Source: Amycolatopsis sp. DSM 110486 (GTDB taxonomy: Bacteria; Actinomycetota; Actinomycetes; Mycobacteriales; Pseudonocardiaceae). From it: a stretch of 64,000 nt of DNA. Below, one piece after another: positions 60,101 through 64,000 of the stretch (position 1 is the first letter of the stretch; every line of letters starts with the position of its first letter). The position numbers were made by a program, and so were the translations under genes. Below the pieces are notes generated by a model. It was not told where the DNA came from, ran no database searches, and saw only the letters and a list, made by a program, of their open reading frames with translations. The stretch lies in NCBI RefSeq assembly GCF_019468465.1, contig NZ_CP080519.1, forward strand, positions 1,441,001 through 1,505,000, given 5' to 3'.

Positions 60101-61012
60101 GAGGTGCAGCGCCACCAGGGAACCCGAGCACGCGGTGTCGACCGTCAGCGTCGGGCCTTCGAGCCCCAGCGAGTAGGCGACGCGGCCGGAGACGACGCTC
60201 GGCGCGTTGCCGGTGAGCAGGTAGCCGTCGAGGCCGTCGGGAGCTTCGTGCAGGCGCGGGCCGTACTCCTGGGCCTCGGCGCCGATGAACACTCCGGCGG
60301 GCGTGCCGCGCAGCGTGGACGGGTCGATCTTCGCGCGCTCCAGCGCTTCCCACGCCGTCTCCAGCACGAGCCGCTGCTGCGGGTCCATCGCCGACGCCTC
60401 GCGCGGCGCGATGCCGAAGAACCCGGCGTCGAACTCACCGGCGTCGGGCAGGAAGCCGCCGGAGGCGACGTAGCTGCTGCCGGGCCGGTCGGGGTCCGGG
60501 TCATACAGACTGTCGAGGTCCCAGCCGCGGTCGGTCGGGAAGCCGCTGATCGTGTGCACCTCGTCCGCGACCAGCTGCCACAGCTGCTCGGGCGAAGCCG
60601 CGCCACCCGGGTAGCGGCAGCCGATGCCGACGATGGCCACCGGCTCGTCGTCGTCGCGGCCCCGGGCGATCAGTCCACTGTCGACAGTCTCCTCCCCGAA
60701 CACCCGCGCGTGCAGGAACCGCGCGACCGCGGCCGGGGTCGGGTGGTCGAACGCGAGCGTCACCGGCAGGTCGAGCCCGGTGGCGTCGGTGAGCTGCGCG
60801 TGCAGCTCCACCGCCGCCAGCGAGTCGAACCCGTGGTCGGAGAACGCCTTCTCCGGGTCGAGGACGGCCGGCACCTCCGGCAGCACGGCCCGCAGCGCGG
60901 CCCGCGTGGCGCTGTGCACCACGTCCGCGACGAGCGCCGCCCGATCGCCCGGCGGCAAGTGCGTCAGCCGCTGGCCGAAACCGGATTCCGGATTCTTGTC
61001 TAACTCACGCAT
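45134..61012 (-). CDS. PKS-1: loading ACP plus three KS-AT-DH-KR-ACP modules; chain initiation
   Basis: A 5292-residue protein. It opens with a free ACP (GFDS near 61) and no loading KS or AT, then three modules. Module 1: KS Cys near 294 in DTACSGS, AT near 734 and HAFH near 836, [12 protein letters not shown] near 1036, KR near 1449 (LDN), ACP near 1762. Module 2: KS from about 1822, Cys near 1994, AT near 2437 and [16 protein letters not shown] near 2741, KR near 3174, ACP near 3479. Module 3: KS from about 3540, Cys near 3714, HGSGT, AT near 4171 and [16 protein letters not shown] near 4480, KR near 4907, ACP with GIDS near 5204. All ATs predict malonyl-CoA, so a triene attached to the starter is expected. 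The ATG at 61012 has GGTGGAG 6 nt upstream; a GTG at 61024 is less likely. An N-terminal ACP loaded in trans is the hallmark of beta-amino-acid-primed macrolactam PKSs. Confidence 0.97.
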
Positions 61013-61120
61013 AACGCACTCCACCGCTGTAGCAAGGCAGCATTCATGGTCGTCGAACGGATCGTAAGTCGGCTCAGCGCCGCCGCGGATCCCCAGAAAA
61101 AGCCGCTAGGGGCAGGGAAA

Positions 61121-62317: not shown

Positions 62318-63582
62318 CGCGAATCCCCTCCAATCGCGGTCATCGGCTGCTCCAATGCCTGGGCGTCGTGGGTGTGCTGGACGTACGAGAGCGCCGACAT
62401 CAAGGTCGACGAGGTGATCGCACCGCCGTGACCGCGCTCGACCACGCGGCGCAGCGGCAGGGAACCGAGGTCGGACCAGCAGAGCCGGCCGGCCGGGTCG
62501 AGATAGCTGCGGGCCTGCCCGGCGTTGTCCGGGTGCAGGCAGAACGGCACGTCGAGCAGGCCGCGCTTGAACGCGACCACGATCGCGCGGCCGAGATCTT
62601 CGTGGCTGTTGAGCACGGCGTCGACCAGCGCGTAGGCCTCGCGGTAGACCTGGTTGTCCGCCTCCACGGTGACCTTCTCGGTGGCTCGCACGGCACCCGC
62701 GTGTTCGAGCGCCTGGACGTTTTCCGCGACGGTCGGGATCCGGTGTGCCTCGGCGACGGTCTTCACGATCAGCCGCTCCGAGCCGGTGCTCAGCGCCAGC
62801 TCGGCCGCCTTGCCGAGCAGGCTCAGCGAGCCTGCCGGCGTACGCGGGAACAGGCCCATGTAGGCGTAGATCACCACGTGCCACGACGCGCCGGGCAGCA
62901 GTTCCGTGCACAGCCGGCGCAGCGCCGCGACGGCTTCCTGGTCCTGGCGCAAGTTGGTCTGCTGCGCGTAGCTCACCGAGATGCTGCGCAACCCCTTGCG
63001 GTAGAAGAACAACGCCTCCAACGCGCTCAACGCCACGAGCTCGCTCGGTGGGCAGAGCTGGCCCATCATGCAGCCGCCGAACGTCTCCAGGTGCGCGCGT
63101 CCGCCCGGCAGCTCGGCGCCGGCCAGCAGTTCGCAGCAGGCGGACCAGTTGCGCACGGACTCGTCCAGCGGCGTGCGGCTGTAGGGCAGGCAGTACGACA
63201 CCGGCCCGCCCTCGGTGGTGTGCAGGCCGGCGGCGAGCATCGCGCGGAAGATGTCCGCGGGCCGCGCCGAACCGTGGCGCACCTGCACCGGGAAGTCCGG
63301 GCCTTCGAGGCCGTCGAGCATCGCGCGCGTGACCTCGGCTGGGTGATTGACGATGGGGTAACCGTTGAGCGCGATGCCGTGGGCCAGGGCGTGCGCGACG
63401 GAATCGGTGTCGCAGACGCGGGTGTAGCTGTCGAGTGTGACGGTGCCAACGGTCGTGGCGGCGGCGTTCTTGGTCGCCGCCAGCCCTGCGCGCATCACGA
63501 CCGGGTCGGCGAACCCCATACGGGGCTGCACGACCAGCTGCCCGGCCGCGTGCCTGCTCGCCACGAACTCTTCGAAGCTCAC
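62314..63582 (-). CDS. Glutamate mutase-like (methylaspartate mutase) large E subunit
   Basis: A 422-residue protein resembling the substrate-binding subunit of B12-dependent glutamate mutase (MutE/GlmE, often about 480 residues) in its TIM-barrel body. Visible segments include GIALNGYPIVNHP, HGSARPADIF, TTEGGPVSYCLPYSRTPL, FGGCMMGQLCPPSEL, SVSYAQQTNLRQD and DVPFCLHPDNAGQARSYLD. With the small subunit and adenosylcobalamin it should convert L-glutamate to 3-methylaspartate. The GTG start at 63582 is set by a GGAGGGG ribosome site and a GTGA overlap with the small-subunit stop. In vicenistatin-type pathways this reaction makes the precursor of a 3-aminoisobutyryl starter, which matches the free loading ACP of PKS-1. 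Confidence 0.9.
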   Translation of the reverse strand: MSFEEFVASRHAAGQLVVQPRMGFADPVVMRAGLAATKNAAATTVGTVTLDSYTRVCDTDSVAHALAHGIALNGYPIVNHPAEVTRAMLDGLEGPDFPVQVRHGSARPADIFRAMLAAGLHTTEGGPVSYCLPYSRTPLDESVRNWSACCELLAGAELPGGRAHLETFGGCMMGQLCPPSELVALSALEALFFYRKGLRSISVSYAQQTNLRQDQEAVAALRRLCTELLPGASWHVVIYAYMGLFPRTPAGSLSLLGKAAELALSTGSERLIVKTVAEAHRIPTVAENVQALEHAGAVRATEKVTVEADNQVYREAYALVDAVLNSHEDLGRAIVVAFKRGLLDVPFCLHPDNAGQARSYLDPAGRLCWSDLGSLPLRRVVERGHGGAITSSTLMSALSYVQHTHDAQALEQPMTAIGGDSR

Positions 63583-64000
63583 ACCCCCTCCACCCGCACG
63601 GGGAGCTGGGCGGCACCGGCGGTCAACGTCGCGGCGAACCGGCGGAAGGACGCGTTGTTCTGCTGGTCGTCGAAGACCGCGTCGAAGCCGGCGAGCAGCA
63701 GCCGCGCCGTCTCCTCCTCGGTCAGCGGGCCGCCGACGCCGAGCTTGCCGCCGATCACCACCGGCAGCGCACGCAGCTCGGGGAAGGATCGCAAGCGCTG
63801 GATCACGCGCAGGCCGTCCTGGTAGCCGTGGCCGTTGACGCTGCTGATCACGAGCATCGTCGGGCGCCGGCTGAGGCATTCGGACTCCAGCAGCTCGTCG
63901 GGCACGCACGCGCCGAGGTTCACCACGTCGAAGCCGAGCTCGCCGACCAGCAGCTCCAGGTACACGAGGTTCCACGTGTGCGAGTCCGACGCCATGCTGC
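63579..64000 (-). CDS. Glutamate mutase-like small S subunit, cobalamin-binding (5' end beyond window)
   Basis: The C-terminal 139 or so residues of a B12-binding Rossmann protein. The base-off cobalamin motif appears as SDSHTWN, with the axial histidine present but Asn at the usual Gly of DxHxxG. SSVNGHGYQDG corresponds to the SxL/loop region and VIGGKLGVGG to the GG motif. The reading frame stays open to the window edge; the ATG at 63995 falls inside the SDSHTWN region, so the real start must lie beyond 64000. It partners the E subunit encoded immediately downstream, with overlapping stop and start. The operon probably continues upstream with other starter-unit genes, which are not visible. 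Confidence 0.88.
   Translation of the reverse strand, partial: SMASDSHTWNLVYLELLVGELGFDVVNLGACVPDELLESECLSRRPTMLVISSVNGHGYQDGLRVIQRLRSFPELRALPVVIGGKLGVGGPLTEEETARLLLAGFDAVFDDQQNNASFRRFAATLTAGAAQLPVRVEGV

What the first reader, a model, noticed from the sequence alone, without database searches (positions are those of the whole stretch)
60700..64000. Beta-amino acid starter logic: glutamate mutase operon feeding a free N-terminal ACP
The mutase subunits, P450 and PKS-1 are in one minus-strand run with overlapping or close spacing. PKS-1 starts with an ACP and has no loading AT or KS. In vicenistatin biosynthesis, mutase-derived 3-methylaspartate becomes a 3-aminoisobutyryl starter placed on such an ACP by a discrete acyltransferase. 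The window therefore predicts a polyene macrolactam with a branched beta-amino starter. Confidence in a macrolactam is good; the exact starter is inferred.
Basis: partly seen in the sequence, partly recalled or inferred. Interest (0 to 1): 0.75.

Follow-up and report, generated by a model that had tools for sequence, protein, structure and literature searches.

The report
Vicenistatin-type macrolactam cluster, swapped terminal module

Summary
Past 64000 the operon continues as a complete vicenistatin-type starter cassette: decarboxylase, adenylase, dipeptide ligase, stand-alone ACP, discrete acyltransferase, aminopeptidase. The N-terminal ACP of PKS-1 best matches, in the PDB, a loading ACP solved with such an acyltransferase. 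PKS-1 alone of six PKS proteins shows no N-terminal docking domain. The host is an Amycolatopsis; the cluster belongs to the published ciromicin/macrotermycin group (PMC10662134).

What is new lies in the terminal PKS (20395-31299). Of 17 related clusters examined, 13 lack KR10 (one also DH10, four also KR9); 4, including this one, keep a tenth module without visible lesion. Module 9 and the P450-mutase genes group the window with clusters that lack KR10, but module 10 plus thioesterase groups it with the intact ones. Module 10 and TE were therefore probably exchanged at the ACP9/KS10 junction. Ten working modules would give a 24-membered ring (expected m/z 525.296). Activity of module 10 is inferred; AT10 has an unusual QAIH motif.

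Verdict: reader supported; new variant of a known kind.

The parts
62314..63585 (-). Glutamate (methylaspartate) mutase E subunit, VinI-like
   Evidence: Pfam PF06368 286.5 bits; PDB 6h9e glutamate mutase epsilon 1.6e-32
63579..64000 (-). Mutase S subunit, VinH-like (continues to window coordinate 64067, L002:580-1068); cobalamin motif DSHTWN instead of DxHxxG. The rest of the cassette follows outside the window: see the Full report section, THE FLANK, for places
   Evidence: Pfam B12-binding; NCBIfam mutase S models hit below cut-off; PDB 1cb7 3.7e-6; D[SA]HTWN in 77 of 78 loci with a hit, unread in the other
61121..62335 (-). Cytochrome P450 of the operon
   Evidence: Pfam p450 2.1e-34; 85-92% identical in loci L084-L094 and L099
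45134..61024 (-). PKS-1: loading ACP, then modules 1-3 (KS-AT-DH-KR-ACP each)
   Evidence: loading ACP vs 8h6s_C; no PF08990 found
39834..45137 (-). PKS-2: module 4 KS-AT-DH-KR-ACP, N-terminal docking domain
9215..14311 (-). PKS: module 5 KS-AT-DH-KR-ACP (start approximate, from the docking domain)
4515..9200 (-). PKS: module 6 KS-AT(methylmalonyl type, GHSQGE/YASH)-KR-ACP, no DH (start approximate)
1..4476 (-). PKS: modules 7 and 8, KS-AT-DH-KR-ACP each (start approximate); continues to window coordinate -5780 (L006:14220)
20395..31299 (-). Terminal PKS: modules 9 and 10 (both KS-AT-DH-KR-ACP) and thioesterase; module 10+TE differs in ancestry from module 9, break at about residue 1660-1680
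14446..15348 (-). Second, short glycosyltransferase-like ORF (300 aa; 24% identical to the GT at window coordinates 71410-72666, outside the window)
   Evidence: tblastn 6e-21; ORF
31644..34656 (+). Amino-sugar genes: PIG-L deacetylase, nucleotide-sugar dehydrogenase, epimerase/dehydratase family; taken as the xylosamine set by analogy with PMC10662134
38457..39248 (+). Discrete type II thioesterase
35648..38446 (-). Large LuxR-type (ATPase + GerE) regulator

Best explanation
The locus is a complete 3-aminoisobutyrate (3-Amp) macrolactam cluster. Glutamate mutase S+E makes 3-methylaspartate from glutamate. The VinN-like enzyme loads it on the VinL-like ACP, the VinO-like enzyme decarboxylates it, the VinM-like enzyme caps it with an amino acid (alanine by analogy), and the VinK-like transferase moves the dipeptide onto the N-terminal ACP of PKS-1. 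Ten modules extend it, the VinJ-like peptidase removes the cap and the TE closes the lactam; the P450, amino-sugar genes and glycosyltransferases decorate it. The terminal PKS is a mosaic: module 9 belongs to the cluster's own lineage, while module 10 and the TE belong to another lineage with an intact tenth module, joined at the ACP9/KS10 linker. So this cluster should make a 24-membered ring instead of the 22-membered ciromicin ring. Shown: gene content, catalytic residues in place, conflicting ancestries. Inferred: every enzyme activity, the starter, the ring size and the direction of the exchange.
For: Cassette. Loading ACP. Pathway logic in print: PMC11284099 parts 1-2 of 7, PMC10662134 parts 1-4 of 8. 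Ten modules with their catalytic residues. Calibration: A. saalfeldensis, reported as a ciromicin producer (its MS features; isolation was from the sister strain PS_44_ISF1), lacks KR10 and has arginine for the DH10 histidine; A. rubida, reported there to carry a cluster nearly identical to the 20-membered macrotermycin one, lacks KR9 and KR10, the KS10 histidine and the AT9 serine. Mosaic: the four intact clusters are 91/84/83/90% identical to six KR10-lacking Amycolatopsis clusters over KS9/AT9/DH9/ACP9 but 73/61/53/60/49% over KS10/AT10/DH10/ACP10/TE, where those six keep 83/66/57/68/61% with two clusters of other genera. Trees: intact rows as one clade is rejected for module 9 (p 0.0013) and for P450+mutase (p 2.7e-8), yet has support 100 for module 10+TE.
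Against: AT10 carries QAIH where eight other ATs carry HAFH, so its extender or activity is unsure. KR10 has the highest dN/dS of the domains (0.35 against 0.24 for KR9). KS10 and AT10 are also under purifying selection in clusters where module 10 is thought silent, so conservation alone does not prove extension. No product is known. The trees of the P3 parts are quick ones, some groups were named after seeing them, the window's place in the P450+mutase tree is not starred (93/96), and the mutase E tree alone rejects one clade for the intact rows only at p 0.0245 and leaves the window's place open. For these last points, and because the two main rivals must fit beside it, I put 0.62 where my draft had 0.72.
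Confidence: 0.62

Rival explanations
1. Module 10 is intact but skipped: the chain passes through KS10-ACP10 to the TE and a 22-membered ciromicin-type ring results.
For: AT10 motif QAIH (VAAH in G030 and P0246) is non-canonical; KR10 has the highest dN/dS; in the ciromicin-type relatives a module 10 that lacks KR is proposed not to contribute.
Against: The catalytic residues of KS, AT, DH, KR, ACP and TE are kept in 8 of 8 intact Amycolatopsis rows compared; among the four intact clusters DH10 and KR10 stay under purifying selection (0.22 and 0.35) although a skipped module needs neither.
Confidence: 0.27
2. No exchange: intact module 10 is ancestral, and module 10 merely evolves faster where KR10 was lost.
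For: Related two-module terminal PKS with a KR10 exist outside these clusters (P0325, host not named; P0335, Kibdelosporangium persicum), so the intact state is old.
Against: A faster rate would not unite clusters that module 9 and the P450-mutase genes place apart: one clade for intact rows is rejected at p 0.0013 and 2.7e-8, and the window's grouping with orientalis/jiangsuensis is rejected for module 10+TE at p 1.9e-4.
Confidence: 0.12
3. The cassette loads a different beta-amino acid, such as aspartate-derived beta-alanine or 3-aminobutyrate.
For: Adenylases of one family serve several starters (PMC11284099).
Against: Mutase and decarboxylase are both present; the adenylase scores 609 bits to 3wvn (recalled as VinN) against about 120 to the other solved beta-amino-acid adenylases 7dq5 and 5jjq (recalled as HitB and IdnL1).
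Confidence: 0.04
4. The mutase serves a separate methylaspartate pathway and only lies near the PKS.
For: 36 of 80 named mutase loci have no VinO, VinN or VinK homologue of 50% identity.
Against: Here the mutase ORFs overlap the decarboxylase and P450 ORFs, and the whole cassette follows.
Confidence: 0.01

Closest known systems
Vicenistatin cluster (vin), Streptomyces halstedii
   Same: Mutase, VinN/O/M/L/K/J set and N-terminal loading ACP; PDB entries recalled as vin proteins are top for the VinN-, VinL-, VinK- and VinJ-like proteins and the loading ACP
   Different: Vicenistatin is 20-membered and carries vicenisamine; here ten modules in six genes and a xylosamine-type sugar set
Ciromicin clusters (cir, pac, asa) of Amycolatopsis
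   Same: Six PKS genes, ten modules, a P450 in the operon, xylosamine-type set, two glycosyltransferases (one short), butyrolactone (AfsA) gene nearby
   Different: Those lack KR10 and have a broken DH10 (PMC10662134; A. saalfeldensis seen); here module 10 shows no lesion and module 10+TE is of another lineage
Macrotermycin cluster (mte), Amycolatopsis sp. M39 / A. rubida
   Same: Same starter cassette and general layout
   Different: Terminal PKS there has lesions in modules 9 and 10 and gives a 20-membered ring
24-membered macrolactams incednine, silvalactam, auroramycin, sipanmycin
   Same: Predicted ring size; auroramycin also carries xylosamine
   Different: Incednine uses 3-aminobutyrate and silvalactam probably too. 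The starters of auroramycin and sipanmycin were not stated in the passages I saw; a Streptomyces filamentosus locus (L108) has the whole mutase cassette and I recall auroramycin's producer as that species, so auroramycin could be a 24-membered 3-Amp precedent

Membership tests
3-Amp (vicenistatin-type) macrolactam cluster | Glutamate mutase S and E subunits | tested here: met
3-Amp (vicenistatin-type) macrolactam cluster | VinN-type adenylase and VinO-type PLP decarboxylase | tested here: met
   (decarboxylase by family and position; no VinO entry in the PDB hits)
3-Amp (vicenistatin-type) macrolactam cluster | VinM ligase, VinL ACP, VinK acyltransferase, VinJ peptidase | tested here: met
3-Amp (vicenistatin-type) macrolactam cluster | First PKS opens with a loading ACP and no loading KS/AT; no separate docking loading module | tested here: met
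   PF08990 in 5 of 6 PKS proteins (one at 19.8 bits, under the 20.9 cut-off), not found in PKS-1
3-Amp (vicenistatin-type) macrolactam cluster | Product contains 3-aminoisobutyrate and is a lactam | not testable with these tools
   needs chemistry
Ciromicin/macrotermycin group of Amycolatopsis | Six PKS genes, ten modules, TE in the terminal one | tested here: met
Ciromicin/macrotermycin group of Amycolatopsis | Xylosamine genes, GT pair, AfsA-type butyrolactone gene | tested here: met
   (sugar identity by analogy only)
Ciromicin type proper (22-membered) | Module 10 lacks KR and has a broken DH | tested here: not met
   KR10 present, KR10 and DH10 catalytic residues in place
Macrotermycin type proper (20-membered) | Lesions in modules 9 and 10 | tested here: not met

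The most novel reading that the evidence does not exclude
Ring size in Amycolatopsis 3-Amp macrolactams is set by a transferable end block. The terminal PKS, or its last module with the TE, is swapped between clusters whose starter and P450 genes have another history; in the window's lineage such a swap replaced a silent tenth module by a live one and expanded the ring from 22 to 24. The ACP9/KS10 linker would then be a naturally tested fusion point.
Probability: 0.5. Interest if true: 0.7.

Novelty: new variant of a known kind. Interest (0 to 1): 0.5.

Why it matters
The starter logic is textbook and adds one more member. The terminal PKS is more useful. The published account attributes ring-size variation to mutations in the last PKS. 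Here the block's ancestry conflicts with that of the rest of the cluster, which points to exchange as well as loss, names a natural fusion point for assembly-line engineering, and gives a mass that can decide the matter.

Tried and rejected
The 129-aa ORF between the VinM- and VinN-like genes (66897-67286) was first taken for the extra gene reported between asaD and asaE. By the names of its homologues it is a PIN/VapC-like protein; it has no tblastn match at 1e-5 in the 80 loci, A. saalfeldensis included, although that strain has an extra gap there (712 bp, against 135-262 bp in 11 of the 13 loci measured). So not shown to be the same gene, and left out of the mechanism.

The ORF at 19444-20343 was suspected to be the short partner glycosyltransferase; it is a TetR-type regulator. 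The short GT lies at 14446-15348.

A first reading, that intact module 10 is simply ancestral, was demoted. The first motif script used a wrong offset and is void; one search replaced it. In one search the Saccharothrix row was a wrong reading frame; I do not rely on that tree, and the row was re-extracted. One of 18 close clusters (G012) was dropped from the terminal-PKS comparison: its best TE hit is on another contig than its mutase.

Substrate-code residues of the VinN-like enzyme were not compared one by one; a search of the review for two of them found no text. No structure was predicted.
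Full report
WHAT WAS CLAIMED AND WHETHER IT IS THERE. All are real. The E subunit (62314-63585) matches Pfam Met_asp_mut_E with 286.5 bits and the solved glutamate mutase E chain. The S subunit (63579-64067) runs 67 bases past the window; it matches B12-binding and, weakly, glutamate mutase S. The P450 lies at 61121-62335 and PKS-1 at 45134-61024. With the start codons I chose, neighbouring genes overlap by 7 and 22 bp or lie 96 bp apart.

WHERE IT IS. The window is part of a 10.98-Mb genome in two contigs. The closest named mutase is that of Amycolatopsis rhabdoformis, 93% identical.

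THE FLANK. Places are window coordinates carried on past 64000, with the L002 place in brackets. Decarboxylase, VinO-like, 64064-65365 minus (1065-2366): Pfam Orn_Arg_deC_N 2.7e-35, best PDB match 7ru7, a BtrK-type enzyme, 1.1e-59; no entry named VinO came up. Adenylase, VinN-like, 65275-66738 minus (2276-3739): 3wvn 4.7e-182, 609 bits; 3wv4, the same molecule, 463; next other protein 203. Second adenylase, VinM/IdnL7-like, 67292-68842 minus (4293-5843): 6akd 1.6e-193, 8k4r_A 2e-187. Stand-alone ACP, VinL-like, 69023-69268 plus (6024-6269): 5czd_B 1e-23. Acyltransferase, VinK-like, 69261-70229 minus (6262-7230): Pfam VinK_C, 5czc 1.4e-129. Aminopeptidase, VinJ-like, 70207-71232 minus (7208-8233): 3wmr 1.7e-132. 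Next to it lies an EryCIII-type glycosyltransferase, 71410-72666 plus (8411-9667). I recall the PDB entries as VinN, IdnL7, VinM, VinL, VinK and VinJ; the tables give generic names. The first 100 residues of PKS-1 match 8h6s_C, 'polyketide synthase modules 1-3'; chain A of that entry is among the acyltransferase's best matches.

NO SEPARATE LOADING MODULE. PF08990 docking domains are found near the N-terminus of five PKS proteins (one, for module 5, at 19.8 bits, under the 20.9 cut-off) and not in PKS-1, so nothing here suggests a protein docking in front of it.

HOW SPECIFIC IS THE MUTASE. Of 80 named loci with this mutase (the best 80 of 159), 37 have a VinK homologue of at least 50% identity in the DNA held, 36 have none of VinO, VinN or VinK at that level, and 7 have VinO and VinN but no such VinK, one of these cut by its contig; 29 of 80 hold the whole set of eight.

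ASSEMBLY LINE. Six PKS genes give ten modules: 3+1+1+1+2+2, the last with a TE. Alignment of the ten ATs, ten KRs and nine DHs shows the catalytic residues in place; AT6 has the methylmalonyl-type motifs GHSQGE/YASH, ATs 1-5 and 7-9 HAFH, AT10 QAIH; module 6 has no DH. The order of use is the published one for the group (PKS1/2, PKS4-6, terminal PKS3), not proven here. With ring size 4 + 2n (my arithmetic), eight, nine and ten active modules give 20, 22 and 24, which fits macrotermycin and ciromicin.

THE TERMINAL PKS ACROSS THE GENUS. Mutase E of at least 81% identity occurs in 18 of the 80 genomes, own included. The terminal PKS could be taken from 17 (G012 is broken). Aligned to the window: 4 show no gap of 30 or more residues (window, G030, G067, G040); 8 lack KR10 as a block, 7 of them also the DH10 histidine; G075 lacks DH10 and KR10; 4 lack KR9 and KR10 and part of AT9. 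Lesions agree with reported products: in A. saalfeldensis (reported ciromicin producer, by MS; the compound was isolated from strain PS_44_ISF1) KR10 is gone and the DH10 histidine is arginine; in A. rubida, described there as carrying a cluster nearly identical to macrotermycin's, the KS10 histidine, AT9 serine, KR9 and KR10 are gone. A protein search found four more intact ones (P0242, P0246, P0247, P0253; P0245 and P0249 are G030 and G067 again); the 8 intact Amycolatopsis rows compared keep every catalytic residue looked at in module 10.

SELECTION. Among the four intact clusters mean dN/dS is 0.10-0.24 for module 9 domains and 0.16-0.35 for module 10 domains, KR10 highest. In four KR10-lacking clusters KS10 and AT10 are still constrained (0.12, 0.20) and DH10 is looser (0.34). 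So DH10/KR10 constraint argues for use, KS10/AT10 constraint does not discriminate.

THE MOSAIC. Sliding identity shows a step at window-protein residue 1660-1680, the linker between ACP9 and KS10. Before it, the four intact and six KR10-lacking clusters are 91/84/83/90% alike (KS/AT/DH/ACP); after it 73/61/53/60/49% (KS/AT/DH/ACP/TE). There the KR10-lacking Amycolatopsis stay 83/66/57/68/61% alike to Kibdelosporangium and Actinokineospora, which lack KR10 too. In the module 9 tree (22 rows) the window and P0242 sit with the KR10-lacking orientalis/jiangsuensis group (SH-aLRT 99.8), and holding the intact rows together is rejected (p 0.0013). In the module 10+TE tree the intact rows are one clade (100), holding the window with that group is rejected (p 1.9e-4), and so is one clade of all Amycolatopsis rows (p 5e-31). 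An independent tree of P450 plus both mutase subunits (20 rows) puts the window with the same group, which there also holds two 20-ring clusters (93/96, not starred), rejects one clade for the intact rows (p 2.7e-8), and rejects one clade for the four 20-ring rows (p 1e-40), whose terminal PKS (KS9, DH9, ACP9) is nevertheless one clade (100). Mutase E alone is weaker: p 0.0245 against one clade of intact rows, the window's own place open. So the ring-size-setting end of the line does not share the history of the starter end. The intact group was defined by the presence of KR10 before any tree; the other groupings were named after seeing them. The direction of exchange is not shown; that three clusters of other genera carry the KR10-less type suggests, but does not prove, that the intact block was brought in.

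WHAT IS KNOWN. I read text parts 1-4 of 8 of PMC10662134 and parts 1-2 of 7 of PMC11284099, and passages of both and of PMC9230918, PMC6943886 and PMC11446937. PMC10662134 reports 28 Amycolatopsis 3-Amp clusters, says terminal-PKS domains vary, and attributes ring size to mutations; it states that module 10 lacked KR in the four clusters compared in detail. Its main text holds none of the words recombination, horizontal, exchange or swap; its supplements were not open to me, so an intact module 10 may be drawn there. Listings for macrolactam with recombination and ring size, for 24-membered macrolactams with Amycolatopsis and for ciromicin/macrotermycin showed no title or abstract reporting such an exchange. 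Most subscription papers are outside the library.

VERDICT. The starter logic is confirmed at gene level and ordinary for its class. The terminal-module exchange and the 24-membered prediction are the part worth following.

Noticed in passing
window coordinate 66897-67286 (L002:3898-4287), minus strand: A PIN/VapC-like 129-aa ORF sits inside the starter cassette between the VinM- and VinN-like genes; no tblastn match at 1e-5 in the 80 mutase loci compared. A partner gene was not looked for beyond the neighbouring ORFs.
   Followed up: partly
63579-64067, minus strand: The mutase S subunits carry D[SA]HTWN in place of the clostridial cobalamin motif DxHxxG, in 77 of 78 loci with a hit (one could not be read).
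   Followed up: partly
loci L107, L110, L111, L126, L150, L159: Mutase with VinO- and VinN-like genes but no VinK or VinL homologue in the DNA held: possibly another use of carrier-bound 3-aminoisobutyrate, unless the contigs are cut.
   Followed up: no
loci L106, L109 (Spongiactinospora): Mutase E beside VinM-, VinK- and VinJ-like genes but without VinO, VinN or mutase S matches above 50% in the DNA held.
   Followed up: no
window coordinates about -12323 to -11355 (L006:7677-8645): AfsA-type butyrolactone synthase gene near the far end of the cluster, as reported for the group.
   Followed up: partly
34740-35441, minus strand: MOSC-domain protein between the sugar genes and the LuxR regulator; role in the cluster unclear.
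   Followed up: no
L002:12107-14435: Carboxyltransferase-domain protein and a further type II thioesterase just outside the cassette; possibly extender supply and editing.
   Followed up: no
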